In this document: one piece after another, positions 162-33,514 of the stretch | Numbering within the stretch: position 1 is the first letter of the stretch | Layout of the letters: each line of letters starts with the position of its first letter | NCBI GenBank assembly: GCA_000310025.1 | Contig: FN649728.1 | Coordinates: 1,225,952-1,260,091, forward strand | From: Ectocarpus siliculosus | Taxonomy: Eukaryota > Sar > Phaeophyceae > Ectocarpales > Ectocarpaceae | DNA length: 34,140 bases | Direction: 5' to 3' | Made by a program: the position numbers and the translations under genes | Notes under the pieces: model-generated | Told to the model about the DNA's origin: nothing | What the model saw: the letters and a program-made list of their open reading frames with translations, nothing else | The model's database searches: none

Positions 162-639
162 CGCCCTAAACATTTTCTCAGGCCTTTCTCTATCCACCCC
201 TCATCCACGGAATCCTGCGCTTCCAACAAATTCTAAATATTCAACACACCGTAGCGTTGGATATATATATATGTTGAAGTTCACTCTTCTCATACCCGGC
301 CCGGTGCGTTCTTCTATCCGCAGGCTGCTCACTTCATAGATCCCACCGCGGAAAGCATTGGAGAAATGATGCAAGCTTTTGACGTAGGGGAACATCATTT
401 TGAGCACTGCTCCAACAACACGTGGCCCTAGTGAAAAGCTTGCCTCCGTGCTATCGTTGGTGCTGATATTCGTAAGGCTGCTGGTGCTTCTGCTCCTGCT
501 CGTGTCATGATGTTGTTGCCGCAACGTCGGTGTTACGCCAGTGAATACCCATAATGTTTTTCGAGTTTTTGCCGCTCTCGTTGCTGTCGTTGCTGTTGCC
601 TCTCCCCGCGGCTGTGATTGATGCTCGAATATTCGTCAG
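162..639. other. No gene recognised
   Basis: I see no convincing coding segment here. The stretch contains a short (TA)n run near 261-272 and, towards its end, a pyrimidine-rich tract leading to a possible 3' splice site at 638-639 for the dehydrogenase-like exon that follows. Earlier exons of that gene are either outside the window or missing. Confidence 0.4.
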
Positions 640-1251
640 GGCTTGCTCGCTACGGCACGCTTGTACTGTTGGGTATTGACGCGGCCAAGGTTTCGGTGAC
701 ACCGCCTCAGCTGATTGATGGGAGGAAAAATTGTCACCTGGCCGGCGGGGACTGTACGCGATTCGCAGGCCAGATCCAGGGACGGCGGGAGGGGTCACAA
801 GAATCTTGAGGAAAGGATGGAGATACTATACCGCTCTCAATGTGTGTGTTTTCCTCCAAAGTTCGGGTGACATTGGCAATTCCCGGTTTAACTGTAGACA
901 ACTAGGGCAGGGCGAGTAGCACGGACGGGGGGGAAGGTATGTGACACCATGCAGAGAAGAAGAAACATCTATATATTTCGGCACGGTCGTGCATGATGGT
1001 GAGTAACTCCCATTCTTCCCCTTTGTTGACGTTGTTTGCAGGATGCGATGGAGTTCGCCCATATGCACCAGATCGCCTCCAAGACCGTGTCCTTCGAAGG
1101 CATCGGCAATGCCCCCGAGGCCTACGCGGCAATGCGTGATTGCGTCTTCCTTGTGCTGATCGAGGTGGTCGACTCCGAATGGCGCGGCAACCAACCGCCG
1201 TTCCTGCAGCAAAGCTGCCCGGACGCATCGTATGAAGTGACACTATTTTGA
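640..1251 (+). CDS. C-terminal part of a zinc-type (MDR) alcohol-dehydrogenase-like gene, incomplete
   Basis: Two coding-like segments are visible. The first follows an AG at 638-639 and reads ARYGTLVLLGIDAAKVSV...QLIDGR. This resembles the strand after the Rossmann fold in medium-chain dehydrogenases, where a G-x-LV-x-xG strand is followed by a hydrophobic LI-x-GR segment. The second starts after TTTGCAG at 1035-1041 and reads DAMEFAHMHQIASK...GNAPEAYAAMRDC, ending at TGA 1249-1251. It resembles the family C-terminus, in which a helix is followed by an NEA-[YF]-x-x-M pattern. The second exon starts in phase 0, and a GTATGT donor at 937 would make a 105-bp intron. I cannot find a clean donor after the first segment, which runs into a TGA near 807. 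The N-terminal zinc-binding half is absent. It is either a partly exonised gene starting outside the window or a decayed copy. The family call rests on pattern recognition only. Confidence 0.4.
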
Positions 1252-1297
1252 ATAAAACTGTCGCTGATCTACCTGTGGCGGCGAAAGCAAAACATTG

Positions 1298-1410
1298 GGA
1301 GAGGGAGAAGAGTCAAACAGAGAGAATAATAGAGAGAGAGGGAGGGACTGAGGGAGATTATCAGAGAGAGAGGGAGAGAGAGAGAATCACAGACAGAGAG
1401 GGAAGGTGGC
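1298..1410. repeat. GA-rich imperfect microsatellite
   Basis: The tract is dominated by GAGAGA and GGGAGA units with short interruptions. It lies just downstream of the dehydrogenase-like stop codon. The open frame through it encodes only an Arg/Glu/Gly-rich artefact. Confidence 0.85.
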
Positions 1411-4400
1411 GGGTTCCGTGTTTTCTTTTCCATGTTTCATTCCACTTACTTGTTTTGCCGTCGCCCCACCACTGTTCGCAATACAGGGCGGCGGGGATCA
1501 CGTTATTTGCACCGAAGAACGTCTGTAGCCCTCAGTATGTGCTGAGGCCACTCGTGGTAGCACGCAACCTCACCCTCGAAGTAGGATTGCCCCGGAGCGC
1601 TCGCACCCCTCTGCCTGGGGTCCCAATCTCCGATTCTACACGTAGTGCTGGATCACAGCTACAGTAGTTTTGTACCACAACTTGTTTGTCCATGTAGAGA
1701 TCGTACATGTGCAATCGTTTGGCATCTCGTGGGGCAACTTCGATGGGTGCCACCTTGCACCTTTGGCGCCATTGTAGCACGGAGGGCACAGCAATGGGCA
1801 GGCCGTCACCCGAGGAGTAAAAGAAAATCGTTAAATAATGCGTCATAACTCTAGCAGTGGCGATGGAACCAAAACACCGCGGTTGTTTTCGGCGGTAGGC
1901 GGTTTGAACGTTTTTCGGCGATGACGACTTCGATAAAGGCGGAAACGGCAATTTTTGAAACGGCCATAATTCTGCGGAGTGAGTGGCTCACGAAATTGTA
2001 ATAGGGTGCCCCGTAGAGTCGAGAAACCTCAAAACAATTACATTACTTTTCGACGGCCAGGCGAAACGTCATCGGCGGCTATCGGCCGAACTATGTAGGC
2101 ACTACGCAACAAAACATTTCGGTGAAAGAGATGGTCACAAAAACTTTGTCGTAGTGCTGAAGTGCCCAAGATTATTACACGGTGCGCGCGGAATGTGCCC
2201 CTGTCCATTCAAATAAATAGCGAAGGCTTCTCCCGAACAGGAACCTGACCCAAAATCCAGACGAACCATAAAGCAGACCGAACACCGAAAAAGCTTGACA
2301 CACGATAGTCGCGCCTCCTTGAAACACACAACAAAATCGACAGGTCGCCATGACTATACTCTTCAACGCACTCCTTTTCAGCCCGTCCGTAGCGCGAGAT
2401 AACTCTCATACTCAATTCTCACGACACAAGATCGCAACAGCACCAACCGACAGAGGTGCCTGACCTAGCACATCGCCCAAGGCACGGGATGGAAGCGTAG
2501 CATGCACGTGAAAGCCAATCTCTCCAGCATATCTCGTTCAAGAGCAGAAACTGAGATTTGCCTAGAGTGAGATGCTGGGTCAACAAACAAGCGCACCCTC
2601 CTGCAACCACCAAGACCACGTGTCATTTCTACAGTACTCTCCTTCATATGTGGAACCAAAAAGCCATTCCGCTCGAGGCTGGCTCCGCCGCCCATCACCC
2701 CAGTGAGCGAGTCGCACTGGCCCAAGAGTGTGCCGAGTTTCAAGCCTACACTCCAAGCTCTCAGCACAACAACGAACGCCTCAGAAAGGAGCTTCCCGTG
2801 TTAAATACTCCTTTCGTTGCTCGCGTTCGTCGGTCCAATCGTCCCCCAACTTCCTCAGGCTTCAGATTTCCTCCCCCTAGGGTTTCCCCCAGCAACATGT
2901 GGGTGTCACGCGCAGCCTCCGGCAACCCAAGTCCCGAGGAAGTGCAAGCACTGTTTCTACCACCTCCCCCTGGCCTACCTACGCGACATTCAACAAGACA
3001 TGGTCCATGCCGTTAAACGACAAGATCCACATCAGGAGGAAGACCGTGAGAGATGGCAGCAATCCCTCCCATTTCAGGCCCTGATCACCGTATGACAACT
3101 CGTCCGCCTCGACGAATCTCGCGTAGTACAAGTAAGTGGCCCCAGTGACGAAGGCGAATCCCCTTCGTAGACGCCAAGCGGACAAGCACAAAGACGGCGG
3201 CGTCATTCCTCAGAAAAGTCAAACCGCAGGAGCGGGCGGACAGCTCGTGTCGCCACAACATGCCACTGGAAGTCCGAGACTTGGACGGATCCAAATAGTG
3301 TGGGGAGATAATCGCAGGGTTTGTTCGGGCGGACGGTGACTCGTGACTCGTGCGGTTCGGTGCATGCACACACATATGGTGAAAAAGATCTACATTACCA
3401 TTCATTCAATAAACCCCGCTTTGGCAGTGTCTCAGCGGGGAAAGGGGCCAGCGAAAGTCGTCATGGCGAACCGAAGCCCTGGCTAGGCCAGAAACTTACT
3501 GGTCGGGGTGTGCATCGAACCCCACGAAAAAGTAGGGGTGACTTCAATGAATCATTTGTCATCCACCACCCTCTTGTATCGCGACATGGCCCATGCACCC
3601 GCCACGGGAAAGCACTTTGGCTGTACTTGCCTGTATGAGAGCCTTGTGGACGCCGGCGAAAGTGGAAAAAAAAAAAAGGTCTCTACCATCCAATGATCAT
3701 CCGCCATTTGGCGCTTCCCTTTCGACTGCGGGGACATTTCGCCTCAATGATTGGTTTGGTCCCCGACCGGGGGAGGGAGGGCACGGAGGATAGACAAGTA
3801 TGGTGTTCTTGGTGTGTTTGGCGCCGAACGTTGGTCATTCACCTACTTAACAGTGTATTTCTGGAGGTTAGGAGGAAAGTCTTGATGCACAGTCCGCGCC
3901 ATCCCTTACGATTCATGTGCGCAGAGTAGACAACACACGAGCCACATATGTCTAACAAAGGTCCAGGAACAAGAATCAGGCAATCACGTGCCGCTCAGTG
4001 ACGAAGCAAACGCGCTCACAACTTGCTCACCCCACGAGCCCGAACCATCCAGTGACTCCCGCGACACCCACACATATCCCCGCCACCGCCGCCATGAATT
4101 GTCTGAACCAGTGGACGCATACGGGAAAGTCTTCGAATGTGTCCTGCGGACAACATTAAAAACCGGAATAGCAACGCCGTCGCGGCGACGGCAGCAGCAG
4201 CAGCAGGAGCGCGGTGAATTGCCTAGATGCTCATGAGCGAGCGGCCAACAGAAACCACATCGGAGGAAACAAACATGAACCAAGTAGCAGCACCAGCACA
4301 ACAAGAGTGGCACCACCTCAACAAGATGGCATTCTCCAAACCACTACGGCGAAAAAGAACAAGGGAGGTTGGTCGACTTGCAGTTTGGCGCGGCATATGC

Positions 4401-4460
4401 GATGAGACTGGTTCTGATTCGCCTACCCTTGTTGATAAACACCAAAAACCATAACCATAA
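1411..4460. other. Intergenic, no gene recognised
   Basis: Several overlapping open frames of 60-150 codons exist on both strands. None shows a recognisable domain, a consistent frame or a plausible exon structure. Visible landmarks are an A12 run at 3665-3676 and a CAG-type triplet run near 4192-4205. A region near 2880-3060 has two overlapping frames rich in Pro, Ser and Gln that I could not assign. Confidence 0.4.
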
Positions 4461-4516
4461 TTGTTTGTTGCACTCTTTATATTTATTATTGTTTGTTGCA
4501 CTCTTTATATTTATTC
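4461..4516. repeat. 28-bp tandem duplication
   Basis: A 28-bp AT-rich unit beginning TTGTTTGTTGCACTC occurs twice in direct succession (4461-4488 and 4489-4516). Only the last base differs. The near-perfect identity suggests a recent slippage or duplication event in noncoding DNA. Confidence 0.9.
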
Positions 4517-7235
4517 ATTTGCTCCTTGACCATAACTGGGTAAAAGATGTGACCAGACCCAGCTGCTGCGAGAAACTTTCTAAATGTGTGGGTAACTATG
4601 TGAGGGTCCTCGCAGACTTTACCCGACGGCACTATCGTGGTTAAGAGGAAAAAAAAAACGGTGTAACAGCCACTCGCGTGGGCTGGAGAGATCTAGCTAG
4701 CACACGGCACTCAGGCTTAGCTCCGCGCTCGCCCCGTGATCTGAATGTACGAAAACCAAGTGGATGCCGGCAACGCACTGATGGACTCAACAGTGAGCGG
4801 AACAGTGGTTAGCGCAAGGGTGGGACATCGCTGCCGCCGCAAAAACACTTGGATGCTAGAGGCCATGGATGTCGCGGTGTCTTCTCAGACAGATCAGTAC
4901 CAGGTGGGGGCACAGTCTACGGCGTGTAGATAGGCTGAAGGCGTTGAAATCCCATAAGTGGGAGTTAGGGTGCGGCACACACGTGGGTTGCCAGGAAAAA
5001 AAAACAGAACGCTGGGGCTATGTACCCGTGTTCTTACGGCGAAAGAAAAAACGCCATCACGGCCTTCTAGTCCCCCGACGGACGCCTACGCAAAGACAGC
5101 AAGATTCGCACGAAAATTGACCAGGGAGGGGGAGGGGGCACACACACCCTAACCCCAACCCTTAACCCCGGACTTGGCCGATTCCACACTTTTTCCTGCG
5201 TAGACTTGTCTCCCGACAGGAAGGTCGCAAGAGGGAGGAGATTGGACAACGGGGCCCGAAGAACAACTTGTGTGCGTACGCAGTACCGAGTCGTTGAAGC
5301 TTTGGCTTCAAACATATCTATTTAGTCGCACTTCGCAAAGCGCACGAGAAAAGCCGCAATGTCAAAAAGGGTCAATAATACATCCACACATCAGACTTTG
5401 GAACACTTCCCGAGAATTAGCGACCGGGATTTCACGGGGATAACCGCAAAAATGTACAGCAGTGCCATCGGCCGGGTGACTAGCGGGGAAATCTACTGGT
5501 AAACACCCGACTAAAAACGCCCTACTACTACTGTAGACAAAAATATCTAAGTACCACTTTTCCCACCAATCTGGGCATGCCTGGTGAGCACATTGAACCC
5601 AGATTAGCGGAGGTACAGAAATCTTCCTCCAAGCAAAAGGTGGCAGTAGTCTGTATTTAGTACACCAAGGACACGCCACTGGGAATCTACAACATACAGT
5701 AGCTACCCGTTGACGAGATTGTGGACCCACGTGGAGGCCGCTGAGCCCGGAGAAGCTGCTGCTGTTTCGAGGGCAAACAACTGCTGAAGTTTCCCTTCAA
5801 ACATTCCCAACAAGATCATGGCGGTATCTCATGTCCATGAATTTTGTAGCACGAGATAAATGTTTCCTGGATTGTCTCCTTTCGTCATCCGCTGCTTGTC
5901 GCTGCTGAGCAACCACCCGAAAAACAAGGTTCTCATTTTTACCGTCAGAAAAGCCCGGTCTATTTGCTGGATGGAGAGCACTACGAGCACAGAGCGCAGT
6001 TGATGGTTCCCATAAATATATGGACACTGCGAGGTTTGGTCAACCAGGAGGAGAGAAAGGCGGGACTACCATTGGAGACATTCCAAGCCACGGCGGGCGA
6101 TCAACGGCGCAACAGCAGTACGGAGGAGGGAGATGTGTGCTGTACACACATACCTTATCCCATCTGGCGCCTCGCTGCAACCCCTTAGACCATTTTGTTG
6201 AGCAGCTCTGCACGAATGTAGGCTCCGCCTCCGCCACAACTGTTCTTCTGCTCCGGTTACTCATGGCTTCGCTCTCAACTGCTGGTGCGGGCTTCCGTCC
6301 TGTTGTCCGAGCTGCTGCAGCTGCCTGCTGTGCACCATACCCGCCCACCCCCCCACCCCCGCCTTGTACTCTATTCCTGCGGTATGCGTCCCCCCCCCGC
6401 CCGTTGCCTTGCGTTGCCTTGCATTGCCGTTGTACCGATGTTTTGGGAGTGCTCACACACACGCAGCGCGACTCTACTCATTGAACAACTATGATGCACC
6501 AGCTAAGGAAACCTTCCCATCCTCGTGCAGTGGCTTGTGCGAGACTCCTTCACTCTTCTCCTCCGAAGAAGTCGTCGTTCGGTATGGTAAGAAACAGTGC
6601 ACCTTGCACTTTGTGCACGAGAGGAAGGGTTTTTCACAGGTTTTTCATGTGTTTGTTCGGTGTTGAAAACGGCGGGAAAAGGGTACAGCATACGAGTACA
6701 CCTTTCCAGCCAATATAGGGTACCTCGTACGATGAATACGTAGTACGAGCACAATTTGCGCAGCTGCCGCCCCTTGTACCCCAAGACGTCACTCCGTGCC
6801 GGGATCTAGAGCGTAGACTGCACGGCAACCCACACAAAGAAAGTACAATATTTGGATCACAGTCCGCCCGCCCGGTGGACCAGGCCCGAAGTCAGTGTTG
6901 GTGTGGACCTGGTGTGCACTGCTGGTGTGGACCCTATGTTGCAGAATTTTCTGACTGTCGAAGTCAAGGGCTGACGGGATCAAGCAGGCGAATATAGGCA
7001 TATAGGCCAGATAGATATAGGCACTGTAAGCAGTAAGCAGACCAGCTCCGCCCGGTGAGGAAATCCTCGAACCCTCGAAAGAAAAAGGTTTGTTCTAAAA
7101 AGAGTTCAGAACCCGAGGCGTACCGGAACACAGAACACGCACGGGTGTAGCTACAGAAGGGTTCTCGTTCGTCGGGTCATGCTTTGTACATATCTACGAA
7201 TCCTCGCTGCTGTAGTCTACAACATGTTAGGGTTA
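4517..7235. other. Intergenic, no gene recognised
   Basis: No coding region can be supported. The stretch contains an A10 run at 4650-4659, a telomere-like patch near 5148-5170, Pro-rich low-complexity DNA at 6340-6430 and no clear splice-bounded exon. The open frames at 6020-6490 on either strand are driven by CCC/GGG repetition. Confidence 0.4.
5148..5170. repeat. Short interstitial telomere-like patch
   Basis: A few degenerate CCCTAA-like units (CCCTAACCCCAACCCTTAA) follow a short CA run. They resemble the TTAGGG telomere repeat, but the patch is very short and imperfect. A chance C/A-rich origin is equally possible. Confidence 0.3.
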
Positions 7236-8266: not shown

Positions 8267-11200
8267 GCCTTCGACATTGACGGGGTGCTGGTGAGGGGAC
8301 AAGGGGTCCTACCCGGGGCCCGTGAGAGCCTTAAAGCTCTGGAAGATGCCCGTGTTCCGTATGTGTTCGTCACGAATGGGGGGGGTGAGCGATTTTTGTA
8401 CGTACTTTGCCTTACCGGGTTGAATGGTAGTGCCTTTGTCATCCGTTGCAAGACGCGAGATAATCTCCTCGCGCAACCATTAATTTGCCGGGGTCGGTTG
8501 GGGTAGCAGGGTGGGGCGGGACTAAGTCCCGGCTACACCCAGCCGTTCGGAAGGCTCTCCAACACGGAATCCGAATCGCGTTGATCCGAGGCGTGTCACT
8601 TGCTACAGGTTGGTAAGGGTAGTCACCACGTCACTGACTGCTATTCGAGCGAACCCGTTGGGGCGGGGACAATGTCCTGCATACAGTGAACCCGCAACCC
8701 GCCTGCTTGTTCCGCGTGCTTCGCTTTTTTTTACTCTCATGTGCTATGGGTTTGGGTGCTTATTTTGTTTCTCGATCCGTTCTGATTCCTCGCCCCAAGG
8801 CTGCACGGAGGAGGCGAAGGCGAGAGACCTGACCTCAAAGTTGGGAGTGCAAGTGCACCGATCGATGGTGGTTTTGTCGCACTCTCCGATGAGGGCGCTG
8901 GCACCGGAATATTCCGGGAAAAGGGTGATGGTACTGGGGTCCTCGGCCAAGAAAATAGCCGAGGAGGACCTCGGCCTGCTAGACACGGTTGAGTGCACAG
9001 GTTTGCCACGAGCCTGGACTCGCAGACCGATTCAGCTTTGGTTTTGAGATTCCACGCACAGCGCTGAGGTTGAAGGTACTCTGCATGCTTGCTTTGCCTC
9101 ACCAACTCCTGTACCCCCGGGCGTTGTTCTATCCACACAATAGGAGGATTGTCTTTGGTACCGAAGGTTATCCTGGTGCTACTGAGTGGGGCGCTCTCGT
9201 GTACACGGCGGCAATATTTACTCGCTGCTTGCCAGGTTCAGAATTCCGTTTGGCGCATGAATGACTTCGAGTTTCGGCGGCGTGCGTCCATCGTAAAGGG
9301 GACTGTACTGGTGGGTGGTTTATCGCGTTGGCCAGCCCTCGCTATTGTTGCGACTTAGATTCGCGCTCAGCATGCTGCAGTCCAACGCAAGCGATAGCTT
9401 TCTACCTCCCCGTGTACACGTCCCGTCTTTCCTCATTGCAAACTCGTGTCTGCCCTCCACAGGTAACACCGGAGGAGTTTGCAGGCGAGTGGCCTGACAT
9501 TTTTCATTTCACTGGAGACGGTTACTACATCCCAAGACATTTTCCAAGAAGGTGCTGTTCGTGGGCTCTTCCTGAATCTCGTGCTGTTGCGTAATATGAT
9601 TTACTGCATTTCACTGTTGTGTTGCTTGGCAGTGGAGAGATTCATGACCAACCTATCAGATTTGCAATTGCGATTTTTTTAGCGCCATCCACGTTTTGTC
9701 ATTGTGCTCGTCAAAATATCTCGCCGCAAAACCAGGCGGGCAACTACCACACCGGCTGAAGCTGGGCAGGAGTGTGGGCGCTCTTCGTCACGGGCATTAG
9801 GTTTCCCTCCCTTCTCCAATTGTGGGCCGTCCCGGCCGATTTGATGTTGTCTTCCCTCTCGTAGTGCAGGCTCCACAAGGTTGTTGTAGCCAAGGAGTAC
9901 ATCACACCTGTCGTCTCACGAGGGTATCTATCTACATGCAGTGTTCACTATTTTTGTTTCAGCAATAACATTCGTCATTTTCCGTTTCTTTCAACTGAGG
10001 AAGTCTTGCCGAAGGCGAGCGTTCTCGATCTGTGTCCGCCGTAATGGTGCTTCATGACCCCTTGGATTGGGCGCTCGAGGCTCAAGTTGTCGTCGACGTC
10101 CTTCGCGGAGGTGCGCCCGATCACGTTGTTGCAGTTTCGATCCAGGTACACTTGCGCCCGTTGACCTATTCGTCGTGAATTGTCTGCTGGTGGAAAGAAG
10201 CACATGTTCTAGAGCGAACGCGTTCTGGATAAGGTGTTCAAACAAGTGTTGACTTCTCCCTCCTGCACGTGTACTTTGTCTTAGCCAAAGCGTCCCAGTT
10301 GTCGGGTGGCAAGGGGTGGGCATCAAGGTCTAATAGGTTTTGGTGTATTCGCGCAAACTACGAACATCCTCCTCTAGTTTGACGTACCTGCAGCTCGCTG
10401 AACTCGGCAACGAAACGGAAACGTGGGCATGCAAGAAGTTTGCGACCGTTCAATTTCTTACTCCACCTTGTCCGGACATCTCTCGCACGTTTGATCAGGA
10501 GACCCCCCGGGGTCTGGTGGCGCCTCACAAACGCCCATGTATATTTCCAACCCGGACTTCGTTTTTGCCTCCATGTATCAGGAGCCAAGATTTGCCGCGG
10601 TAAGTGGGTCGACCCCGTAGAAGATTCGATATTCGACCGTCCGATATGTGGGGACCAACGGCAAATATTCATGCCGCTGAGTGTGAGGGAAAGTTACCGC
10701 TTGGCTCACCGGTCGTCTCGGCGGGACGGTGGCCAAAGGGTAGACGTGACATAATCGCTGCTACCTGCCATCCTTTTCGGGCGACTGCGCCTTCGTGTTG
10801 CACTCAATGAACAGCGAGAGTCCTCCTGCCCTGCATACTGCTCGCATGCGATGACTCGACGGGGTTTCATGAGGTGATGTCGGTAGAGGTTCCTGTTTTG
10901 CCAACCTGACCGTGTCGGATTTCTTGGTGATGCTTTCTTTCGTTTTGCCGGCATTTGGACAATTCAGGGCGCATTTGCTGACACCGTGCGAATGCTGTAC
11001 GCTAAGAGGTTCGCGACGAGCGAGCCAACAATCGAGGTGTTCGGCAAGCCCACCATTTCGACCTTCGACTACGCGAGGCGCTTGCTGGAAGAGCGCGATG
11101 GAGTCATCCGTCCCCAGCAAGCAACCTCGAAGATAGAACGAATTTACATGGTTGGAGGTGTGTCACGTTCTCGCAGTAACTCCTGTCCCTGTTGGTGGCG

Positions 11201-11701
11201 GACCCCGACCGCCATTCCCCGCGTCATTCCTCTGCTGCTTCTATAGAATCGTGTTTTGCGACTTAGTGCTTGTTGAACAGAGGTGCGCCTACTGTAAGAG
11301 GACTCGCCTTCATGGCAGATTTAAAGAGGTTGATGCGCGCATTTTCGCGTCGAACGTTTGTTGATCGAAATCCCCAGAAACTTGACAACACCCCATGTAG
11401 CAAAATTGTTTGGCCACCGATGTTGTGACCAAGATTTTGTGCGTGCTTGCATTTGTCAAACCGTGCCTCGTTCGTCCCTGTCGCAGACAACCCAAGTGGC
11501 GATATTCGAGGAGCAAATGCCGCCGGACCTCCTTGGGTGTCCAACCTCGTGAAAACAGGCGTTTTTCGTGACACGGGCAATCGGGGCAATGACGCCAAAG
11601 ACCCGGCACACTTTGTCCACGACGACGTCAAAGAATGTGTCAATTTTGCAATTGAACGAGAAGCCCGGGGGGGCGATGAGTATCCACGTAATCAAGTCTG
11701 A
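8267..11701 (+). CDS. HDHD5: HAD-superfamily hydrolase, HDHD5/CECR5 family (seven exons identified)
   Basis: Seven exons assemble into one frame: 8267-8384, 8800-8987, 9463-9520, 10000-10110, 10499-10599, 10968-11157 and 11487-11701. All introns are GT-AG. The summed length is 981 bases, 326 codons plus TGA, with phases matching at every junction. HAD motif I is FDIDGVLVRG at the start of the first exon. Motif II is VFVTNGG at its end. The lysine motif III is VFGKPTIST in exon six. Motif IV is split by the last intron (YMVG/DNPSGDIRGA). Internal family blocks include VLSHSPM, VTPEEF, VMVLHDPLDW and YISNPDF. Known members are phosphatase-like proteins, often mitochondrial; the natural substrate is uncertain. 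The N-terminal 30-50 residues with a start codon are not resolved. An ATG exon at 8085-8108 would keep phase but is weakly supported. The exon 2 donor (ACG/GTTGAG) is the least certain junction. The gene looks intact. Confidence 0.88.
8517..8531. other. Palindrome in first identified intron
   Basis: CGGGACT-A-AGTCCCG is a 7-bp perfect inverted repeat with a single central base, inside the intron between the first two HAD hydrolase exons. It may be incidental. Confidence 0.4.
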
Positions 11702-13775: not shown

Positions 13776-15734
13776 TCAAAGGAAGCTCAGAATCTCACGG
13801 AAGACTCCACTTTGGTCGGGACGATGCAGGAGCCACACCACCGCGCCCCTGCAACGGATGTCTCTTGCTTGACCACCATCAATGGCGTCACCGGCTTGCA
13901 CCGGATTATCTGGGGCCGTTGGCACCCTCTGTTCACTACACTGCCCTCCTAGCGCGCAATCGTGATCGGTGTCCTCCGTCGCCAACCCGTCGTGAAGAGA
14001 TTCGTTCTTCCCGTCCTTCCACCGTCTAGTAGACAACGATAGCAGCGACATTGAGGTACCAAGAACTTGTGTGGCATCAAGGTGTCGAGCCCGCATCATC
14101 ACCAACCATCCCCTACGTCCCCACTTGCTAGCGTTTCTCAACATGCCACAGATGCGGTCAGCGACTGAAGTCTCCACGGCGTTTAACGTGCAAGGAGTTC
14201 GGCTAGTCCCTCCCATCGCCCTCCCCATCGCCGTCCCCATCGCCCTCCCCATCGCACGTCCCTGCCGCGTCTCGAGTGCATCTACTGCCACCATATCAAA
14301 CGGCGAACGGCCTTCGTCACAAAGCAACGAAGTGCTGGCATGATGCCGCAACAGCACCTCCACGGCACCCTCGCGGTTATAGAAGCAGGCAACATGTAGG
14401 GCCGATCGCCCTACTCGGTCAACGCAGTCCACTTTTGCTCCGGCGAGGAGAAGTCGTTCCAACGGCCTGCAGAAACCCTTCTTAGCTGCTACATGAAGGG
14501 GTGGACATTCCTCCCGATCCTTGCCAACGTCCGCTCCGGCAGCGACCAAGTCGTCAATGATGCCCTCTCTGTTTCGAGATGTAGCAACGCTTAGTAGGTT
14601 TTGTTCGGGTATCATGACGGATGCTCTAGTATTGGATACTGAGGCTCCAGCAGCCAGAAGTTCGCGCACCACCTCCTCGTGGCCTTTGTGTACTGCGATC
14701 GACAGCGCAGTTTTCCCGAGATGGCCCTGCATGAGGCACTTGTACTCCAGCGCGGCCCCGGCCTCGATGAGGGCCTTCACGCAGCTCCGGCGCCCATTGG
14801 CGGCCGCGATATACAGAGCAGAGAACGGACGGGAGTGCGGACCGCCAACTTCGCGCACTATCGGAAGAAGACCACCCACTTCAAGAAGGGCCAGCAGAAT
14901 GTCCAAGCTTCCCCCAACCGCGGCGGATACCAAGAGCTTCCGGCAATGTCCCCGGTCAAGTTGTGCGCCAAAAAACGACGGGAAGCCGTCGATAGCAAGG
15001 ACATGTGAAAACATTTGAAAACTTCCGCCAACCACGGCGCCACATAGGAGGTCGAAGCCGTTTTCACGTGTCCAGACCTCCGCGCTTGGGCAACGAGCAA
15101 GGAGAGTAGAAAGTATTTCTACATTTCCTCCTTGCGCGGCTATCTGCATGAACCCCCATGTGGTGATCTCCGTCCAGAACTCCGAATCACTTCGGTATAG
15201 CGCATAGACATCGGAAAATATTTCCAAATTACCTCCCCTCGCAGCGCTTGTTAACAGTGAGCCGGTGTGATGTGTCCATAACTCTGAAACGCTCGGACAG
15301 ACTCTGCGCAGACTGGAAAATATGTGAAAGTTTCCTCCTTCTGCGGCTGCAACGAAAAGACTCCAGCTGGTTTCCTGCGTCCAAAACCCCGAATCGCGAG
15401 GACAGACTGCCAATAGTTGATCAAAGATGCTGAGGTTAGCAGATCTTGCGGCCACTTTCACCGATATCGTCAGCCATTTCCGCCACTGTGCATCCGAGGC
15501 CAACCTGATGAAAACGTCAAGTATCCTCTCCCCGTGGGCCTCCCCGTGGGCCTCGAAAGCAGAGCAACCGCAAAACGATCTGAGGGCGTAGTGTAAATCA
15601 GGGTCTGCTGTCTGCAAAAAGCGCCGGAACACGTCCTTCCAACTGGACTCGGCTCTTGGCCCTTGTCCGTTTCTCTCCTGGTCCATGCGTATTAGTTTTG
15701 CTTCAAGGCCACAAAGCTGTGCCCTGCAACCCAT
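13776..15734 (-). CDS. Ankyrin-repeat protein, 652 residues
   Basis: One uninterrupted frame starts with ATG at 15734 (an alternative ATG is at 15686) and ends with TGA at 13776-13778. Typical ankyrin repeats occupy about residues 305-480, for example ALYIAAANGRRSCVKALIE, KTALSIAVHKGHEEVVRELL, PPLHVAAKKGF and SALHVACFYNREGAVEVLL. Upstream, residues 100-250 hold about four divergent modules of 34-36 residues. Each has a conserved aromatic-W-T (FWT, LWT, FWT, VWT at about 117, 152, 186, 220) followed by a helix of the AA-x-GGN-x-x-IFS type. Short internal duplications encode EAHGEAHGE (about 61-69) and RAMGRAMGTAMGRAMGG (about 493-509). The protein ends GVFREILSFL. No signal peptide or membrane segment is evident, so a soluble protein-interaction role is inferred. 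Partner and pathway are unknown. No intron is needed. Confidence 0.85.
   Translation of the reverse strand: MGCRAQLCGLEAKLIRMDQERNGQGPRAESSWKDVFRRFLQTADPDLHYALRSFCGCSAFEAHGEAHGERILDVFIRLASDAQWRKWLTISVKVAARSANLSIFDQLLAVCPRDSGFWTQETSWSLFVAAAEGGNFHIFSSLRRVCPSVSELWTHHTGSLLTSAARGGNLEIFSDVYALYRSDSEFWTEITTWGFMQIAAQGGNVEILSTLLARCPSAEVWTRENGFDLLCGAVVGGSFQMFSHVLAIDGFPSFFGAQLDRGHCRKLLVSAAVGGSLDILLALLEVGGLLPIVREVGGPHSRPFSALYIAAANGRRSCVKALIEAGAALEYKCLMQGHLGKTALSIAVHKGHEEVVRELLAAGASVSNTRASVMIPEQNLLSVATSRNREGIIDDLVAAGADVGKDREECPPLHVAAKKGFCRPLERLLLAGAKVDCVDRVGRSALHVACFYNREGAVEVLLRHHASTSLLCDEGRSPFDMVAVDALETRQGRAMGRAMGTAMGRAMGGTSRTPCTLNAVETSVADRICGMLRNASKWGRRGWLVMMRARHLDATQVLGTSMSLLSLSTRRWKDGKNESLHDGLATEDTDHDCALGGQCSEQRVPTAPDNPVQAGDAIDGGQARDIRCRGAVVWLLHRPDQSGVFREILSFL
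14208..14260. repeat. 12-bp triplet-type repeat inside the ankyrin gene
   Basis: Short units of the type CCCATCGCC(C/G)TC repeat about four times in frame and encode the Arg-Ala-Met-Gly-rich segment of the ankyrin protein. Being in-frame and a multiple of three, it can expand or contract without breaking the gene. Confidence 0.7.
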
Positions 15735-17062: not shown

Positions 17063-17075
17063 CCAAAAACGTCAG
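17063..17075 (+). repeat. 13-bp direct repeat, left (probable target-site duplication)
   Basis: CCAAAAACGTCAG here is repeated exactly at 17852-17864, on the two sides of the palindromic array. The bases flanking each copy differ, so the duplication is exactly 13 bases. This is what staggered insertion of the array would leave behind. Confidence 0.7.
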
Positions 17076-17851
17076 TCATCTACATTATAGTATTTTTTGG
17101 TGAAATATTTCATGGAAGTCCATGGAAGTCCATGGACGTCCATGAAACCAATCCATTGACTTCCATGGACTTCCGTGAAAAATTTCATGGAAGTCCATNN
17201 NNNNNNNNNNNNNNNNNNNNNNNNNNNNNNNNNNNNNNNNNNNNNNNNNNNNNNNNNNNNNNNNNNNNNNNNNNNNNNNNNNNNNNNNNNNNNNNNNNGA
17301 AACATTTGTTGAACGTTCAGGGATGTTCATGAAATATTTCATGAAAGTCCATGGTCGTTCATGAAACATTTCATGGACGTTCATGGATGTTCATGAAATA
17401 TTTCATGAAAGACCATGGACGTCCATGAAACATTCCATGGACGTTCATTGTATCATGACATTTTTTTTCATGAACGTTCATGGGCGTTCATGAAACATGT
17501 CATGAACGTTCATGAAAGCATGTCATGAACGTCCATGAAACATGTCATGAACGTTCATGAAAGCATGTCATGAACGTCCATGAAACTATTCCATGAAATG
17601 TTTCATGACAAGGAGTGAAATTAGTTCATGGAAAGTTCCATGACAAAAATGTCATGGACATCCATGGAACTTTTCACGGAATGCCGTGAAACATTTCATG
17701 GAATTCCATGGAAGTCCATGGAATTCCATGAAATGTTTCATGGAAGACCATGGAAGTCCATGAAACGGTTTCATGGAAGTCCATGGAAGTCCATGGAAGT
17801 CCATGGACTTCCATGAAACTTTTCATGAAAAAGTACGAAAATGTACAAGCC
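17076..17851. mobile_element. Foldback-like element with ATGGA/TCCAT palindromic core
   Basis: The element lies between two copies of a 13-bp direct repeat. Its ends are imperfect inverted repeats. Left, from about 17081, reads TACATTATAGTA...TTTCATGG. Right, inward from about 17846 on the other strand, reads TACATTTTCGTA...TTTCATGG. They align without gaps, with 22 of 29 bases matching after TACATT, and continue into shared CATGGAAGTCCATGG units. The core is almost entirely short palindromic words such as CATGGACGTCCATG, TTCATGAAA and CATGAACGTTCATG. A 100-N gap interrupts it, so the true length is unknown. No transposase is encoded; the open frames reading MEVHGSPWTSM-like strings are by-products of the repeats. 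I infer a non-autonomous inverted-repeat (MITE or foldback) element. A hypervariable satellite that happens to lie between direct repeats is the alternative. Confidence 0.6.
17199..17298. other. Assembly gap (100 N)
   Basis: Exactly 100 undetermined bases sit inside the palindromic array. A round number of N usually marks a gap of unknown size, which is expected where short reads cannot resolve inverted repeats. Confidence 0.98.
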
Positions 17852-17864
17852 CCAAAAACGTCAG
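17852..17864 (+). repeat. 13-bp direct repeat, right (probable target-site duplication)
   Basis: CCAAAAACGTCAG matches 17063-17075 exactly. Removing one copy plus the array would rejoin the flanking frame as ...GYTPKTSAYR..., so the insertion may have struck an older open frame, possibly the 5' part of the retroelement described next. Confidence 0.7.
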
Positions 17865-20800
17865 CATATAGGTCGAGGAAAGGAGCTACTACTCAGTTTG
17901 TCTCCTCCTGGATCCTTACGCTCGAGCAGCCATGCACCCGATTACGCCGCATGTGGCACATGCGGCGACTTTTTCTCTCCACGCACCAAGCATTGTTGCG
18001 AATCAGGCACTACATCGTCTCCATCTCTCTCTGGGTCGTTGCAATCATCGCAAGAGGATGATGACGACAAGCGGCAACTCCTATTACCGTGGGACCTCAA
18101 CGACGTCAGCAGTGCCCTGGATCAGGTTCGACAAGATACTCTTAAAACGTCAATTGTTTCGACGGTCAAACACGTCGATCCGCAACTGGCGAAAGTATTT
18201 TGCAAACACTGCCAACATGTCGTCATCCTCTTCGTGCAAGCATTTGGAGCTGTACACATGGATCAGCAGAAGTCAGATACCTCAGATCTGTCTCCTCTTG
18301 CAGCGGAAAGATATGAAGCAGCACGTGTCGAAAGACAACTCCAACTTTCCCGAGCAACAAATTTCTGTCAGTGCCGTAATCTCCCCAGCACCTTCACCGC
18401 GCAACAACGACACGCTGGAGCATCTTCGCAACCTACACCCTAACGAAGATCCTGACGTGCGTGGGATTCCAGCATCAAAGCTGCGGGAGATGGTATAAAA
18501 ACGCACAAGATAGACTCCGTCGCCGAAGCTGATGAACCGTTCGAAATCAAGTTCATCAAGCAGACGGTAAACAAAGCCAACCTCAGAGTGCTCCGGGGCC
18601 TGATGGTCTTCGTTTTTCGTATCTCCAAGCTGGTGGAATGAGTGATTTTTTTACTGAAACCTTGGCGGACTTCACTTTTAAAGTCTTTTACTACGGAGAC
18701 GAGCTTCCGGATTTCTGTTGGAACCTCCACACCAGTGCCAACCTTTCAGCGCTGGGAGAGAAAAACGGCCGATTGCAGTTGGAGGGGTTTGGCGTCGCAT
18801 CATCAGCGGCAGCTTCTGCCGCCAATACAAGGGAGGGATGGCCAATATCTCCGAAGCAGCAAACCAGTTCGGAGGTGGTGTTCCAGGAGGAGTTGAGATA
18901 GTGGCTTCCATAGCAGCCCTCAGCCACCAGCAAGGCAGCACCATTCTCTCTTTTGATGGGAAAAATGCTTACAACAGCATGCGCAGATCTTCCATCTTGC
19001 CAAAGGTTGCCACTCATACGCCACATACTTCGGGAACATCTACGCTCGAACCAAGGCGAAATTTCTGTTCAAAACGGAAGATGGTTCGATCGAGGTTGTT
19101 CTTTCACAGCGCGGAGTTCAACAAGGCCGTAATGGGAGGGTTGGCTTCTGTGTAGGACTCCTTGATATCATGAAAGAGTTCAACAACAAGCCACGAGTGC
19201 CAGGAGTCAAACTGATCGGATACGTCGACGACCTCCAAGCGAATCTTCCACCAGGTTTGGCTAGGTACATGCAGGCCATATCCACTGTAACGAATTGGAT
19301 TCAGGAACGTCTCTCCCAACAAGGGATTGAGCTCAGTCTCCCGAAATCCAAAGTGCTTTTCCCGGAAGGTCTTTGCATGTCCTCTTTGACAAACGACGAA
19401 CAGCAACAATTGACGAAAATTGGTCTGTCAGTTGCTGAAGGTGGCATGCCAGTAGTCGGGATCTTAGTAGGGACAGAAGAGTTCCAGAGGAATTTCGTTT
19501 CCAATTTCGCCCGTGGTGACCCGTCAGAATTGATACTCCGCCTAGTAACGCTTGACGACTCTCAAGCCAGCTATCAACAGCTGCGTTTATCTGGTGTGCC
19601 ACGTTTGTCCCATCTGCTGAGGACGATTGCACCGTCTATCACTATCTCTGCCGCAAGAAAACATGACAACATGATGATGTGGGCAATGAGTAAGATCGTC
19701 CTCGGCAAGATGGCCGACAGCATGAGAATACCAACGGACAAAGAAGTACGGGCAGACCCGACGAAGAGCGAGGACGTAGATTTCTTCAAAGGGACAGCTC
19801 GGGCACAGGTGCACCTACGCATGCGTGAAGGAGGACTAGGAATCACGAGCAATGTTCTCATTCGAGAATCGGCTTTTGTGGCAGGGCAAGCACTGGTCTT
19901 GTCGAAGTCAGTGCAAGCATCGACAGGATACATAGTTGAGCAATGTCTGCCCCGGCTTGCCCAGCTACCGACAGGATTGGCTCTGATTGATTCGCTCAAG
20001 AAGCTAGAGGAGATCATCACCAAAGACAAGCTTGAAAAAGTTGTTGGGCAGTCATGGGCTAAACTTGCCACGAGTGATGATTTAACCGCCGCCCTCAAAC
20101 GAGTTTACCTGTTGGAAGCAGGGAAGGCGGGAAAACCCAGTGAAGATGGAAACCCTGACGTCGAACATCAACCACCGTCTACCTACAGCCGAAATGAATT
20201 TGGTCAACACTACCAAGTCTTTGGAGCTCAAGCTCTCCTTTCGAAACCTTTTCATGCACAGTGCGTCATATGCTGGAGACAGACTTGCAGAAGATAGCAG
20301 TCGAGGAAACGTCAAAGAAGAGGGCATTGATCCGCTTGGAGGAAGCGAAAGGCAAGGGAGTCATGTCGTGGTTGACAACGCAAGGGTTGTCAGCAGATGA
20401 AAGAATGATGCCTGATCTATATCAGGAGTCAATCGGTCGTGTACTGGGGAGTCACGATCGAGCAGACTGCGACACAGGCAAACTTTGTGGTGCAGGTGCA
20501 TTGTTACCATGCAAAAACCGCTTGAGCCGAGCCCACTCCCACATCTGCACCAAGACCGGCGCCTCAACCTTCCTCCATAACAGGATGGTTCGAGTAGTCC
20601 CCAACACACTGCGCGAGTGCCATATGCCCATCGCCGTTGAGGATTCTTCCCCTTTTACCACAGGCGCTGGTAGGGGAAAGGGGCTATACAAGATGGATTT
20701 GGTAATCCCCCCAGGATTACACGCACGAGAGAAGGAAGAGGAACTCTGCATCAAGTCCATTCGTAGAGACGTAACAATCGTCAACCCATCCGCAGATGGA

Positions 20801-21321
20801 AGCATCGACAAGTCGATGCAAAAGCCAGGATCCGCCCTCGAAGATCGAGCTCCGAGAAGGCAAATCACTATGCGGGAACTTTCAACCTGTCAAGATCTAC
20901 CCTCCTTACTGCTGCTTGTTCAACGAATCGTGGTCTTGGCAAAGGCACCAATCGACCCATCGTTACTATCGCCAACCACTTGGCGCACAAAGCTTTTTGC
21001 CGGGGGAATTTTGACGACGAAAGAGCCTTAGTTCGCCTGAAAGCTTTTCATACTAACAGGATTTGGAGACGGTTTACTTTCGAGCTAGCTCGTTTTCTGT
21101 CGATGCGAACTCGCGATGTGTTCAAACGTCATGGGCTACTGATCGACCAACTTCCACCAGGGCCAATCGGTTGGGATGTCTGTGACAACGATAGTGATGA
21201 GGGTAGTTATTTTAGGAGTGACGGAGACGAAGGAAAGGGAAAGGGAAGAAAGGAGGACGAAGATGACGATGGAGGAGGAAAACATGGAGGAGTGCAAGAG
21301 AGCAAAGGGCACATGAAATAG
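17865..21321 (+). pseudogene. Non-LTR retrotransposon remnant: reverse transcriptase plus restriction-like endonuclease
   Basis: The recognisable coding blocks lie in all three frames, so at least five frameshifts and some stops are needed and the copy is dead. In order: a Cys-rich segment CGTCGDFFSPRTKHCC (about 17955-18000); LHPNEDPDVRGIPASKL (about 18436-18485); the RT fingers motif SAPGPDGLRFSYLQ (about 18589-18630); RPIAVGGVWRRI (about 18760-18795); FGGGVPGGVE; motif A SFDGKNAYNSMRR (about 18950-18988); SQRGVQQG (about 19107-19130); motif C GYVDDLQ (about 19218-19238). The longest open piece is 19170-20297 (375 codons). Further on come a CxxC...H...C pattern (CKNRLSRAHSHIC, about 20510-20550), the block KMDLVIPPG (about 20690-20715), and RRDVTIVNPSADG. 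I read these as a zinc finger and a PD-(D/E)xK-type endonuclease, as in RLE-type non-LTR elements. The end has an acidic, Gly/Lys-rich tail. Its 5' end may begin before the foldback insertion. Termini are not defined. Confidence 0.72.
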
Positions 21322-31231: not shown

Positions 31232-33514
31232 TCATGTATCTCGAAAATCCAATTCCATCGCACGCATTCCGTGTCGCACGTAAATGTAATCGCGAACGCC
31301 GTCCTGATGGTGGGGGTATGCAAACCTCCCCGTCCGCGGTATCGCTAACGATTTGACGGCGGCCCTTGCGGCCCGCGGCCACCAAAACTCTCGTACATCT
31401 GGCACTAGTACTACTGCGTGAGCCCGACACTCGGACAGATGTTGAATAATGTGCCCCGCCATGACCGGCGGCGGGAAACAATACCCAAAGGCCGGCGTGC
31501 CCAGCCCTGGTGTAACCGCTACATCCTGGCTGAAGACGTCTATTCCGGCCGTGCCTGCGCAGTGATACCGTGAGAAAAACGGCAGGCGGGACGGTCCCCC
31601 GGCTCCCCCCGCATCGGTACGCTGAGCATTCTCGGAAGACGCCATAAGATCGACCGTAAATTCTCCGAAAAACTCTCGCAGCTGCCTAAACACGCGTGAT
31701 CGAAGGCGGATAATTTCGTGCCGGGCCGGTCTTGTGATGTCGTCGGCGACACTATTCGCCGCTGACGGTACCCACCTCAATGTGAGCCAAAATCCGTGTG
31801 CGATTTGCAGCTCGTAAAGGCTAACCAGCATCGAGTGTGTGATGGGGTTTCTCGATCTGCCCTTCCTAAACGCGTCGACAACTGCTCTATTGTCGACATC
31901 CATCAGAACTTGTGCTCGCTTAAGTTCGCCCGGGCGAGCGCTACAACACTCCTTCAGTACCTCGAGCAACGCGAACATCTCCTTGCCATTAATGGAACGC
32001 GACAGCCATTCGTGGGGAAAATCGCCGCCTGCGGAGAATGCGCCACTCGGCAGCGACACTACTCCACCGTATTGGTTGGATGATGCGTCTGACGAAGCGG
32101 TGGTGAGAGAAACGTCGTAGTGTCTCGCTTTGTACCACGGTCCCTCCTGAGCGGTCGATGACAGGTTGAGCCAAATGCGTAGCTCTGCGCGGAGGTCGTG
32201 TTTGTCCCTCAACTGAATGACTCGACCCTTAGCCTTCCTGATCGCCGCGAACATGTAATGAGTCCAAAGGGTGGCCGGTCGAATCGCGACAGACATGCTG
32301 ACGCACTTGCCGGCTATCTTCTCGAGCATGCGCACGGGCACGGAGTCGTTCGCAAGCGCTTGGTCGATGAGCTGATGGAGTTTGAGCAACTTATCCTCCG
32401 GGATGCGGAACGATGCGGTGTAGGAATCGCAGATAATTCCGAGGTACCGCTGTTGTCGAGAGGGGTTGAGGTCGCATTTATTGATGGACAGGAAATACCC
32501 GCATCGGTACGATACCAGGATGCCGGTGTGTAGAGCTTCCGCCGCCGACAGCCACTGTACTCGATCCGACTTCCCGAAGGTATCGACAAAGTTCGCGTAC
32601 CAGGCGTCATCGATATACGCCAGGACGGGGATGCCCTTGGACCGCAGGTACGCGGCTTTGGCGTCGCTCAAAGAATGGTAACAAAACGGACTCTCGTTCC
32701 ACCCAAATGGAAGGGTGGTACAGACGTAATCCACCCCATCGTAGTGGACGCCGAATAGCGGCCAGCTCTCGGGCTGCAGGCGAAGATTATGGAAACCCGC
32801 GCGGTCGTCTAGGCTCCCCATGAACACCCCTTCTTCTGCTACGTGTGCCACCCGTGAGACCGTGTCCATCGTAAACGGTACGTGTTTGCAGCAGGTGTTC
32901 AGGGGGATACCGTTTATAATCATACGGGGTTTGGTTGGCTCCACCGAGATGGACAGGACCAACCGCGGTCTATCCGGGCCCTCCGGTCCTCGGACGTCCT
33001 CCCACCGAACTAAATATCCCCGCTTGTCCAGCGCTTCCACCTCCCGCCGCACAAATTCGGCATGTTCGTCGGGAATGTGGTTGGGGAATACGGCCCCCGG
33101 AAACGCTGCTGGGCGATATGGTTCCTTACGCGACTTCCCTCGATACTCATCGTGGAGGAATTCGAAGACGCTGACACCATCCCGAATATATGACATGAGT
33201 TGATCGCGCTGGGGATGGTCTCGTAGGATGACGTTGTCCCAAAATTCGCGGTTGTGACTAAGCCCACCCGGTACGAAATGTTCCCCGTTCGCGCCGGCGT
33301 CTCTCACCGGGGCGTCCCACGGCAGACGGGTGTGTCCGTCCCCGTGCGGTGGTCGCTTTACTTCTGCCATCGTAGGCACGCGGGCTACGCTCGGCACTAA
33401 ACGTGGCCCCGCCCATTCGCGTTGTTCGTCGGACAGGTCGGGGACGTCGGGGAACGTAACTCTTACTTGCTCATGTCGTCTCGCGAGATGCTTCAGCCAA
33501 TCGTCAGCAAATAC
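31232..33514 (-). CDS. DIRS-type reverse transcriptase and RNase H polyprotein
   Basis: The frame is open from 33514 to TGA at 31232-31234. Residues are counted here from the GTG at 33397. Reverse transcriptase covers about 150-340: KPRMIINGIPLN, the aspartate block GSLDDRAGFHNLRL (about 194-207), TTLPFGWNESPF (227-238) and the catalytic YIDD (261-264). RNase H covers about 430-560: DASSNQYGG (Asp437), SINGKEMFAL (Glu473), MDVDNRAVVDAF (Asp500/502) and ADDITRP. A further conserved-looking region with DLMASSENAQ, FPPPVMAGHI and LVPDVREFWWP follows (580-680). I see no DPPY-type adenine methyltransferase motif, which some DIRS elements have. The first ATG is at 33370, yet the frame upstream to 33514 also looks coding (DDWLKHLARR, DEQREWAGPRL), and a TAG directly precedes it. 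A 3' splice site ending CTACGTAG at 33515 or a gag frameshift could explain this. The recombinase frame follows after a short spacer. Confidence 0.87.
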   Translation of the reverse strand, partial: VFADDWLKHLARRHEQVRVTFPDVPDLSDEQREWAGPRLVPSVARVPTMAEVKRPPHGDGHTRLPWDAPVRDAGANGEHFVPGGLSHNREFWDNVILRDHPQRDQLMSYIRDGVSVFEFLHDEYRGKSRKEPYRPAAFPGAVFPNHIPDEHAEFVRREVEALDKRGYLVRWEDVRGPEGPDRPRLVLSISVEPTKPRMIINGIPLNTCCKHVPFTMDTVSRVAHVAEEGVFMGSLDDRAGFHNLRLQPESWPLFGVHYDGVDYVCTTLPFGWNESPFCYHSLSDAKAAYLRSKGIPVLAYIDDAWYANFVDTFGKSDRVQWLSAAEALHTGILVSYRCGYFLSINKCDLNPSRQQRYLGIICDSYTASFRIPEDKLLKLHQLIDQALANDSVPVRMLEKIAGKCVSMSVAIRPATLWTHYMFAAIRKAKGRVIQLRDKHDLRAELRIWLNLSSTAQEGPWYKARHYDVSLTTASSDASSNQYGGVVSLPSGAFSAGGDFPHEWLSRSINGKEMFALLEVLKECCSARPGELKRAQVLMDVDNRAVVDAFRKGRSRNPITHSMLVSLYELQIAHGFWLTLRWVPSAANSVADDITRPARHEIIRLRSRVFRQLREFFGEFTVDLMASSENAQRTDAGGAGGPSRLPFFSRYHCAGTAGIDVFSQDVAVTPGLGTPAFGYCFPPPVMAGHIIQHLSECRAHAVVLVPDVREFWWPRAARAAVKSLAIPRTGRFAYPHHQDGVRDYIYVRHGMRAMELDFRDT

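What the first reader, a model, noticed from the sequence alone, without database searches (positions are those of the whole stretch)
17063..17864. Foldback-like element made of ATGGA/TCCAT palindromes, flanked by a 13-bp duplication
The core is built almost only from short self-complementary words. Its two ends align as inverted repeats, and an exact 13-bp direct repeat flanks it. Dispersed satellites seldom carry such a duplication; it points to transposition as a unit. The extreme palindrome density also explains the assembly gap. A non-autonomous element whose whole body can fold on itself in many registers would be unusual, and 13 bp is longer than the target duplications of most known cut-and-paste families.
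Basis: partly seen in the sequence, partly recalled or inferred. Interest (0 to 1): 0.75.

Follow-up and report, generated by a model that had tools for sequence, protein, structure and literature searches.

The report
Deleted transposon with palindromic site arrays
The repeat-filled stretch is a defective, internally deleted copy of a large cut-and-paste jumping gene whose two ends are packed with mirror-image DNA words, possibly docking sites for the enzyme that moves it; it shows how a foldback-like element can arise from a known but little-studied transposon group.

Summary
The stretch is a dispersed transposon. Its ends recur genome-wide (43 left, 42 right matches at up to 3 mismatches, reversed controls 0). 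Of 23 distinct end pairs, 15 carry a 7-8-bp duplication, 11 an exact 8-bp one touching both ends; an 11,736-bp copy has one too. The '13 bp' is an 8-bp duplication (AAAAACGT) plus five chance bases. One related locus looks like an empty site. The element is not palindromic throughout: fuller copies carry a non-palindromic core between two CATG arrays, here hidden in the 100-N gap, so true length is probably 1.6-1.9 kb. At least three short classes are internal deletions of the 11.7-kb element. That element holds a multi-exon gene with a CxC6 cysteine cluster, which Pfam ties to KDZ transposases (just under the curated cut-off when scanned as a protein). Best reading: non-autonomous deletion derivative of a KDZ-superfamily transposon (8-bp duplication, as reported for Zisupton). 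That the arrays are dyad sites for a dimeric zinc domain is inference. The KDZ catalytic domain (PF18758) was not matched.

The parts
17065..17072 (+). left target-site duplication AAAAACGT
   Evidence: identical to 17854-17861; 8-bp duplications at the same place in other copies
17073..17098 (+). left terminus CAGTCATCTACATTATAGTATTTTTT
   Evidence: 43 genome matches at <=3 mismatches, reversed control 0; the 19 best other BLAST matches begin at 17071-17073
17099..17198 (+). left palindromic array (its start; cut by the gap)
   Evidence: CATG density, fold z -8.6 for 17073-17198
17199..17298 (.). 100-N assembly gap; by comparison with C31 and C23 it stands for about 1.25 kb (C19: about 0.9 kb): rest of left array, non-palindromic core, start of right array
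   Evidence: hit coordinates; cores
17299..17829 (+). right palindromic array
   Evidence: fold z -21.3 for 17299-17853; tandem periods 10, 22, 32, 33, 45, 53, 64
17830..17853 (-). right terminus AAAGTACGAAAATGTACAAGCCCC on the + strand (imperfect inverted copy of the left terminus)
   Evidence: 42 genome matches at <=3 mismatches, control 0; 12 of the 19 best other BLAST matches end exactly at 17853; 20/30 identity to left end
17854..17861 (+). right target-site duplication AAAAACGT

Best explanation
It is a non-autonomous, internally deleted copy of a KDZ-superfamily (Kyakuja-Dileera-Zisupton) DNA transposon. The parent is about 11.7 kb, makes 8-bp target duplications, and has a 0.5-0.7-kb array of CATG-centred palindromes just inside each end (shown for the C95 copy). 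Short copies arose by deletions joining the left array and a bit of interior to the right array; one junction lies in a CATGG word (shown by comparison). They are moved in trans by the transposase of full copies (inferred). The palindromes most likely serve as arrays of two-fold-symmetric sites for dimers of a transposase zinc domain, perhaps its CxC6 cluster; foldback ability is then a by-product that also drives array-length change and assembly gaps (inferred).
For: Termini. 8-bp duplications: 15 of 23 distinct end pairs with 7-8 bp (17 of 26 before dropping three duplicate rows) against 5 of 648 mismatched pairings; C211 exact CGTATACT; C95 exact TGCCGACT around 11,736 bp. Candidate empty site at C474, 47/57 identical across the insertion point. 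C57 and C95 share 6.5 kb of interior at 93%. Deletion classes keep the parent's first 1393/1404, first 1156, or first ~490-635 bases and resume in or near the right array. Gene: exon A matches 73 places, 4 at 90-100% (this family) and 69 at 37-51%; 26 aligned fragments share invariant G, G, E, A, L, P, Y, C; colinear exons with other families. CxC6 ('associated with KDZ transposases') E 6e-6 on one exon, and the profile is covered 1-64 of 66 when exon pieces are joined (E 8.8e-6). Genome search with CxC6: 11 hits; all 4 over cut-off, and 7 of 11, lie 0.7-1.1 kb upstream of an exon-A match on the same strand. Zisupton makes 8-bp duplications (PMC12730594, passages).
Against: The KDZ catalytic model PF18758 found nothing in the genome, although its control also rang nowhere. 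Exons A and B had no Pfam hit even at E 1-10. CxC6 scores 26.8 and 26.3 bits, just under the 27.5 cut-off in hmmscan; the near-identical C95 exon gave no hit at E<=1 and the corresponding exon of another family (L070:2363-2740) none at E<=10. AlphaFold of exon A failed (pLDDT 42). 8 of 23 distinct end pairs show no duplication of 7 bp or more. No copy with a demonstrably intact gene was found; C211's interior is N. Nothing here tests binding.
Confidence: 0.77

Rival explanations
1. Same deletion-derivative story, but the transposase belongs to another superfamily with 8-bp duplications (hAT, P, Merlin or MULE).
For: 8-bp duplications fit several superfamilies (recalled); no catalytic-domain hit to KDZ.
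Against: No Pfam hit to those families in the exon pieces scanned either; the only hit below E 1e-5 is CxC6, a KDZ-associated domain, with partners in the same order elsewhere in the genome. The hAT target preference nTnnnnAn (recalled) is not seen in 16 duplications. Termini CAGTC/GGGGC do not match the hAT end pattern (recalled).
Confidence: 0.15
2. A local or dispersed satellite of palindromic words, not a mobile element.
For: Array length varies between copies of one site (1117 versus 1578 bp).
Against: Shared sharp termini, 8-bp duplications, shared core, long parent.
Confidence: 0.02
3. About the arrays only (independent of what the element is): the palindromes are not protein sites but grow by hairpin-templated or slippage DNA synthesis, as passive by-products.
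For: Ends of spacers between neighbouring CATGs are complementary more often than permuted ends in the window copy at positions 1 and 3 (17 and 29 of 2000 permutations reach the value), not at position 2 (434 of 2000); in other loci z 14.5, 12.6, 11.4, but those copies are related. Post-insertion deletions at repeats.
Against: Arrays sit at both ends of the full copy and of the short copies binned. A nearby element has 21 exact TTCCATGGAA dyads separated by non-conserved spacers, which looks like site arrays rather than slippage.
Confidence: 0.4

Closest known systems
Zisupton and other KDZ DNA transposons; giant KDZ families of Ectocarpus (PMC12477816, section 5 read; PMC12730594, passages)
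   Same: 8-bp duplication (Zisupton), element above 10 kb, cysteine cluster tied to KDZ transposases by Pfam; giant families there often have broken transposase genes, presumed mobilisation in trans and nested insertions
   Different: Palindromic arrays inside both ends were not mentioned (the word stem 'palindrom' occurs 0 times in the Ectocarpus paper's main text); the catalytic domain was not matched here
Foldback-like elements: Galileo (P superfamily; PMC3688188, abstract), Tetris (listing only), Drosophila FB (recalled)
   Same: Long internally repetitive foldback ends; multiple transposase-domain sites proposed for Galileo's ends
   Different: Here the inverted repeats proper are short and imperfect; self-complementarity is within each array, not only between the ends; duplication 8 bp; no P-type domain found in the exons scanned
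piggyBac/piggyBat ends (PMC11707139, passages)
   Same: Palindromes near the ends bound by pairs of cysteine-rich zinc domains: the proposed working model
   Different: A few palindromes, not dozens; TTAA target (recalled); unrelated transposase
Ds-type and MITE-type non-autonomous DNA transposons (recalled)
   Same: Internal deletion keeping both ends
   Different: Mostly 1.1-2 kb with arrays, low copy number (tens)

Membership tests
Class II (cut-and-paste) DNA transposon | Conserved termini in inverted orientation | tested here: met
   (imperfect: 20/30)
Class II (cut-and-paste) DNA transposon | Fixed-length target-site duplication | tested here: met
   15 of 23 distinct pairs 7-8 bp, 11 exact and adjacent 8 bp, 8 none; also C95 and C211
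Class II (cut-and-paste) DNA transposon | Empty site | tested here: inconclusive
   one site tested: one diverged uninterrupted match, 47/57 bp; the three close copies of that site carry the element
KDZ (Kyakuja-Dileera-Zisupton) | KDZ transposase catalytic domain (PF18758) | tested here: inconclusive
   no hit, control uninformative; exon pieces no hit
KDZ (Kyakuja-Dileera-Zisupton) | Associated cysteine cluster (CxC6, PF18721) | tested here: met
   E 6e-6 and 8.8e-6 but 26.8 and 26.3 bits against cut-off 27.5 in hmmscan; C296 counted over cut-off with its neighbours in the genome search; C95 exon missed at E<=1
KDZ (Zisupton) | 8-bp duplication | tested here: met
   literature value from PMC12730594
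hAT | nTnnnnAn duplication bias and CAnnG-type ends (recalled) | tested here: not met
   16 duplications: T at position 2 in 3, A at position 7 in 5; ends CAGTC / GGGGC
Foldback (FB/Galileo) | Long inverted repeats pairing end to end plus P-type transposase (recalled) | tested here: not met
   short imperfect inverted termini; arrays self-pair locally; no P-type hit in the exon pieces scanned

The most novel reading that the evidence does not exclude
A KDZ lineage whose two ends have turned into dense arrays of overlapping dyad sites read by dimers of the transposase's own cysteine cluster, with different families carrying different palindromic words (CATGGA/CATGAA here, TTCCATGGAA and CCCATGGG near related genes), so that foldback elements arise as a by-product of binding-site multiplication.
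Probability: 0.33. Interest if true: 0.65.

Novelty: new variant of a known kind. Interest (0 to 1): 0.5.

Why it matters
It turns a puzzling palindrome block into a member of a traceable transposon system with a parent, deletion classes and a testable site array. It offers a concrete route by which foldback-like elements form outside the P and Mutator groups, gives a handle on how the poorly studied KDZ transposases may recognise their ends, and warns that such copies can be shortened and hidden by assembly gaps.

Tried and rejected
An autonomous copy was sought in the longest end pairs first. C33 (6,658 bp) is long because of a ~4.9-kb insert in its left array not shared with the other copies compared. 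C53 (5,408 bp) contains another abundant repeat. C211 (10.8 kb) is N inside. Of the 112 matches to CARTCATSTACATT (100 listed), 64 of the listed ones read CATG; the four of these that I fetched to look (L052-L055) are an unrelated ~860-bp repeat, while at least two others are ours (C165 = L012, C18 = L024). A relaxed right end gave 38 matches against 2 controls. PF18758 gave nothing, control empty. Structure prediction of exon A was useless, so no fold search was made. The C345 left match starting at query 1 is alike only in about a dozen flanking bases and no right end was found in the 2.8 kb fetched. The palindrome score was too insensitive to judge by: it also missed the C95 left array. Papers: the listings showed no KDZ element with palindromic end arrays; supplements could not be read, so a catalogue entry may exist. 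The organism was not identified; brown alga is only a guess.

Full report
What is in the window. The exact 13-mer CCAAAAACGTCAG occurs at 17063-17075 and 17852-17864, with a 100-N gap at 17199-17298. CATG is about 15 times denser in the element than in the rest of the window (76.9 against 5.1 per kb). Both halves fold far better than shuffles as single strands (z -8.6 and -21.3). The base facts are therefore right. A 13-bp repeat alone is weak evidence, since one other non-homopolymer pair at similar distance exists in this window.

It is dispersed with fixed ends. BLAST of the left end against the own genome scored 40 of 162 candidates; the 19 best matches other than itself all begin at query 12-14, that is 17071-17073. 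The right part scored 40 of 136; 12 of the 19 best other matches end exactly at 17853. Pattern scans with up to 3 mismatches found 43 left ends and 42 right ends, 0 reversed controls for each. The ends are imperfect inverted repeats, 20 of 30.

Target duplication. I paired ends in 26 cases. Three rows repeat another insertion: a second left end inside L019, L037 (same flanks as L035) and L046 (nearly the same flanks as L032). Of the 23 left, 15 have a 7-8-bp duplication and 11 have an exact 8-bp one touching both ends; 8 have none of 7 bp or more: L006, L012, L018, L026, L029, L032, L038, L049. Mismatched pairings gave 7 bp or more in 5 of 648, a number that still includes the duplicated locus pair L035/L037. 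Two long copies not in that table also have exact 8-bp duplications: C211 and C95. For the window the duplication is AAAAACGT; the flanking CC and CAG happen to equal the element's own last and first bases. Joined flanks of the L035 site hit filled sites on C30, C349 and C158 (left flank in all three, right flank in two, with an 8-bp overlap) and one diverged uninterrupted locus, C474, 47 of 57 bp identical across the junction.

Anatomy. Fuller copies are: left end, palindromic array, non-palindromic core, palindromic array, right end. The cores fall into two sets. In the window the core lies in the gap: in C31 and C23 the corresponding stretch is about 1.25 kb (C23 itself has an 85-N run), in C19 about 0.9 kb (coordinates), so the real copy is probably 1.6-1.9 kb.

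Parent element. A search with a core found longer copies. C57 and C95 share 6.5 kb of interior at 93%. The C95 copy is C95:140174-151909, 11,736 bp, with arrays at both ends and the duplication TGCCGACT. Short copies are internal deletions of it: one class (L005, L009, L012, L014, L019) keeps the first 1393 or 1404 bases, another (L020, L034, L037, L042) the first 1156, and both resume in the right array, at about 11,240-11,430 (the exact point is uncertain in repeats); a third (L018, L033) keeps the first 490-635 and resumes at 10,923; L010 and L017 and L013 also lack about 773-1071. The second class joins at CATGG, present in the core and in the array. After insertion, copies go on shrinking: L035 and L037 sit at one duplicated site (1395 of 1440 aligned bases identical), and L035 lacks 347 bp of core (CCTCGC at both edges) and 115 bp of array.

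The gene. On the minus strand of the parent lie exons conserved with other families. Exon A matches 73 places: 4 at 90-100% identity (C95, C57, C455, C296) and 69 at 37-51%. Pfam sees nothing in exons A and B. Another exon hits CxC6, 'cysteine cluster associated with KDZ transposases' (E 6e-6; 26.8 bits, cut-off 27.5), and with the neighbouring exon joined the profile is covered from 1 to 64 of 66 (26.3 bits). A genome search with CxC6 gave 11 hits; all 4 over the cut-off, and 7 of 11 in all, lie 0.7-1.1 kb upstream of an exon-A match on the same strand. I take this as good but not final evidence for KDZ: the catalytic model PF18758 found nothing here or in its controls, the near-identical C95 exon missed CxC6 at E<=1, the corresponding exon of another family missed it at E<=10, and a structure prediction of exon A failed. 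Zisupton is reported to make 8-bp duplications (PMC12730594, passages), and giant transposons of the KDZ and other superfamilies, often with broken transposase genes, are reported in Ectocarpus (PMC12477816, section 5).

How it probably works. Shown: mobility as a unit, 8-bp duplication, deletion from a long parent. Inferred: movement in trans by the parent's enzyme. Inferred, weaker: the arrays are two-fold-symmetric sites. In favour: the arrays are kept at both ends of the full copy and of the short copies binned with both ends; spacers between CATGs are often complementary at their ends (positions 1 and 3, not 2, in the window copy); an element next to the C296 gene has 21 exact TTCCATGGAA dyads at irregular 15-70-bp spacing with unconserved spacers, beginning within about 2 bp of where homology to the parent ends and with a terminus that resembles ours (9 of 2204 windows reach the score against the left end, but 196 of 2204 against the right end, so only the left is suggestive); and a related gene on C33 has a short array of CCCATGGG-type words about 1.1 kb away. 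piggyBac-type cysteine-rich zinc domains bind palindromes near their ends in pairs (PMC11707139, passages), and Galileo's long ends hold several sites for its DNA-binding domain (PMC3688188, abstract). Against: no binding data; slippage could make the same pattern; and the other four related-family loci (L069, L070, L071, L073) show no clear array in the 3.5-4.5 kb fetched, although their ends may lie outside.

Novelty. Papers in the listings show no KDZ element with such ends, but curated repeat libraries often sit in supplements that I could not read. I call it a new variant of a known kind.

Noticed in passing
L068 4496-5250 (C296:16995-17749): Array of 21 exact TTCCATGGAA dyads (C before in 21/21, G after in 20/21) with irregular spacers, starting at GGGGTAACCTACACTATTGTAC where homology to the 11.7-kb element stops: possibly a sister family.
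   Followed up: partly
L072 about 3030-3350 (C33:4175529-4175849): Palindromic array of CCCATGGG/GGGTACCC words about 1.1 kb from the exon-A ORF of a related family (under the threshold).
   Followed up: partly
L064 2223-2946, L065 2196-2822: Part of the element's core (query about 410-1084) is 71-76% similar to another repeat family at about 14 loci.
   Followed up: no
L003 about 602-5531: 4.9-kb insert inside the left array of the C33 copy with an 801-aa Ala-rich ORF that has CX2CX4HX4C-like motifs (motif recalled); unidentified.
   Followed up: no
L052-L055: Unrelated repeat of ~860-bp spacing that shares the 14-mer CAGTCATGTACATT with our terminus.
   Followed up: partly
window 13776-15734 (-): 652-aa ankyrin-repeat protein (Ank_2 E 6.9e-31).
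   Followed up: no
window 31232-33397 (-): 721-aa ORF with a weak reverse-transcriptase match (RVT_1 E 2.2e-4, under cut-off).
   Followed up: no
window 18718-21031 (+): Neighbouring ORFs with a YVDD stretch that look like a decayed reverse transcriptase (recalled motif; no Pfam hit), near the insertion.
   Followed up: no
C211:30296-41098 (L001, L002): Copy with ends 98-99% identical to the window's and an exact 8-bp duplication, but a 9.85-kb N interior: a good place to look for a full recent copy.
   Followed up: no
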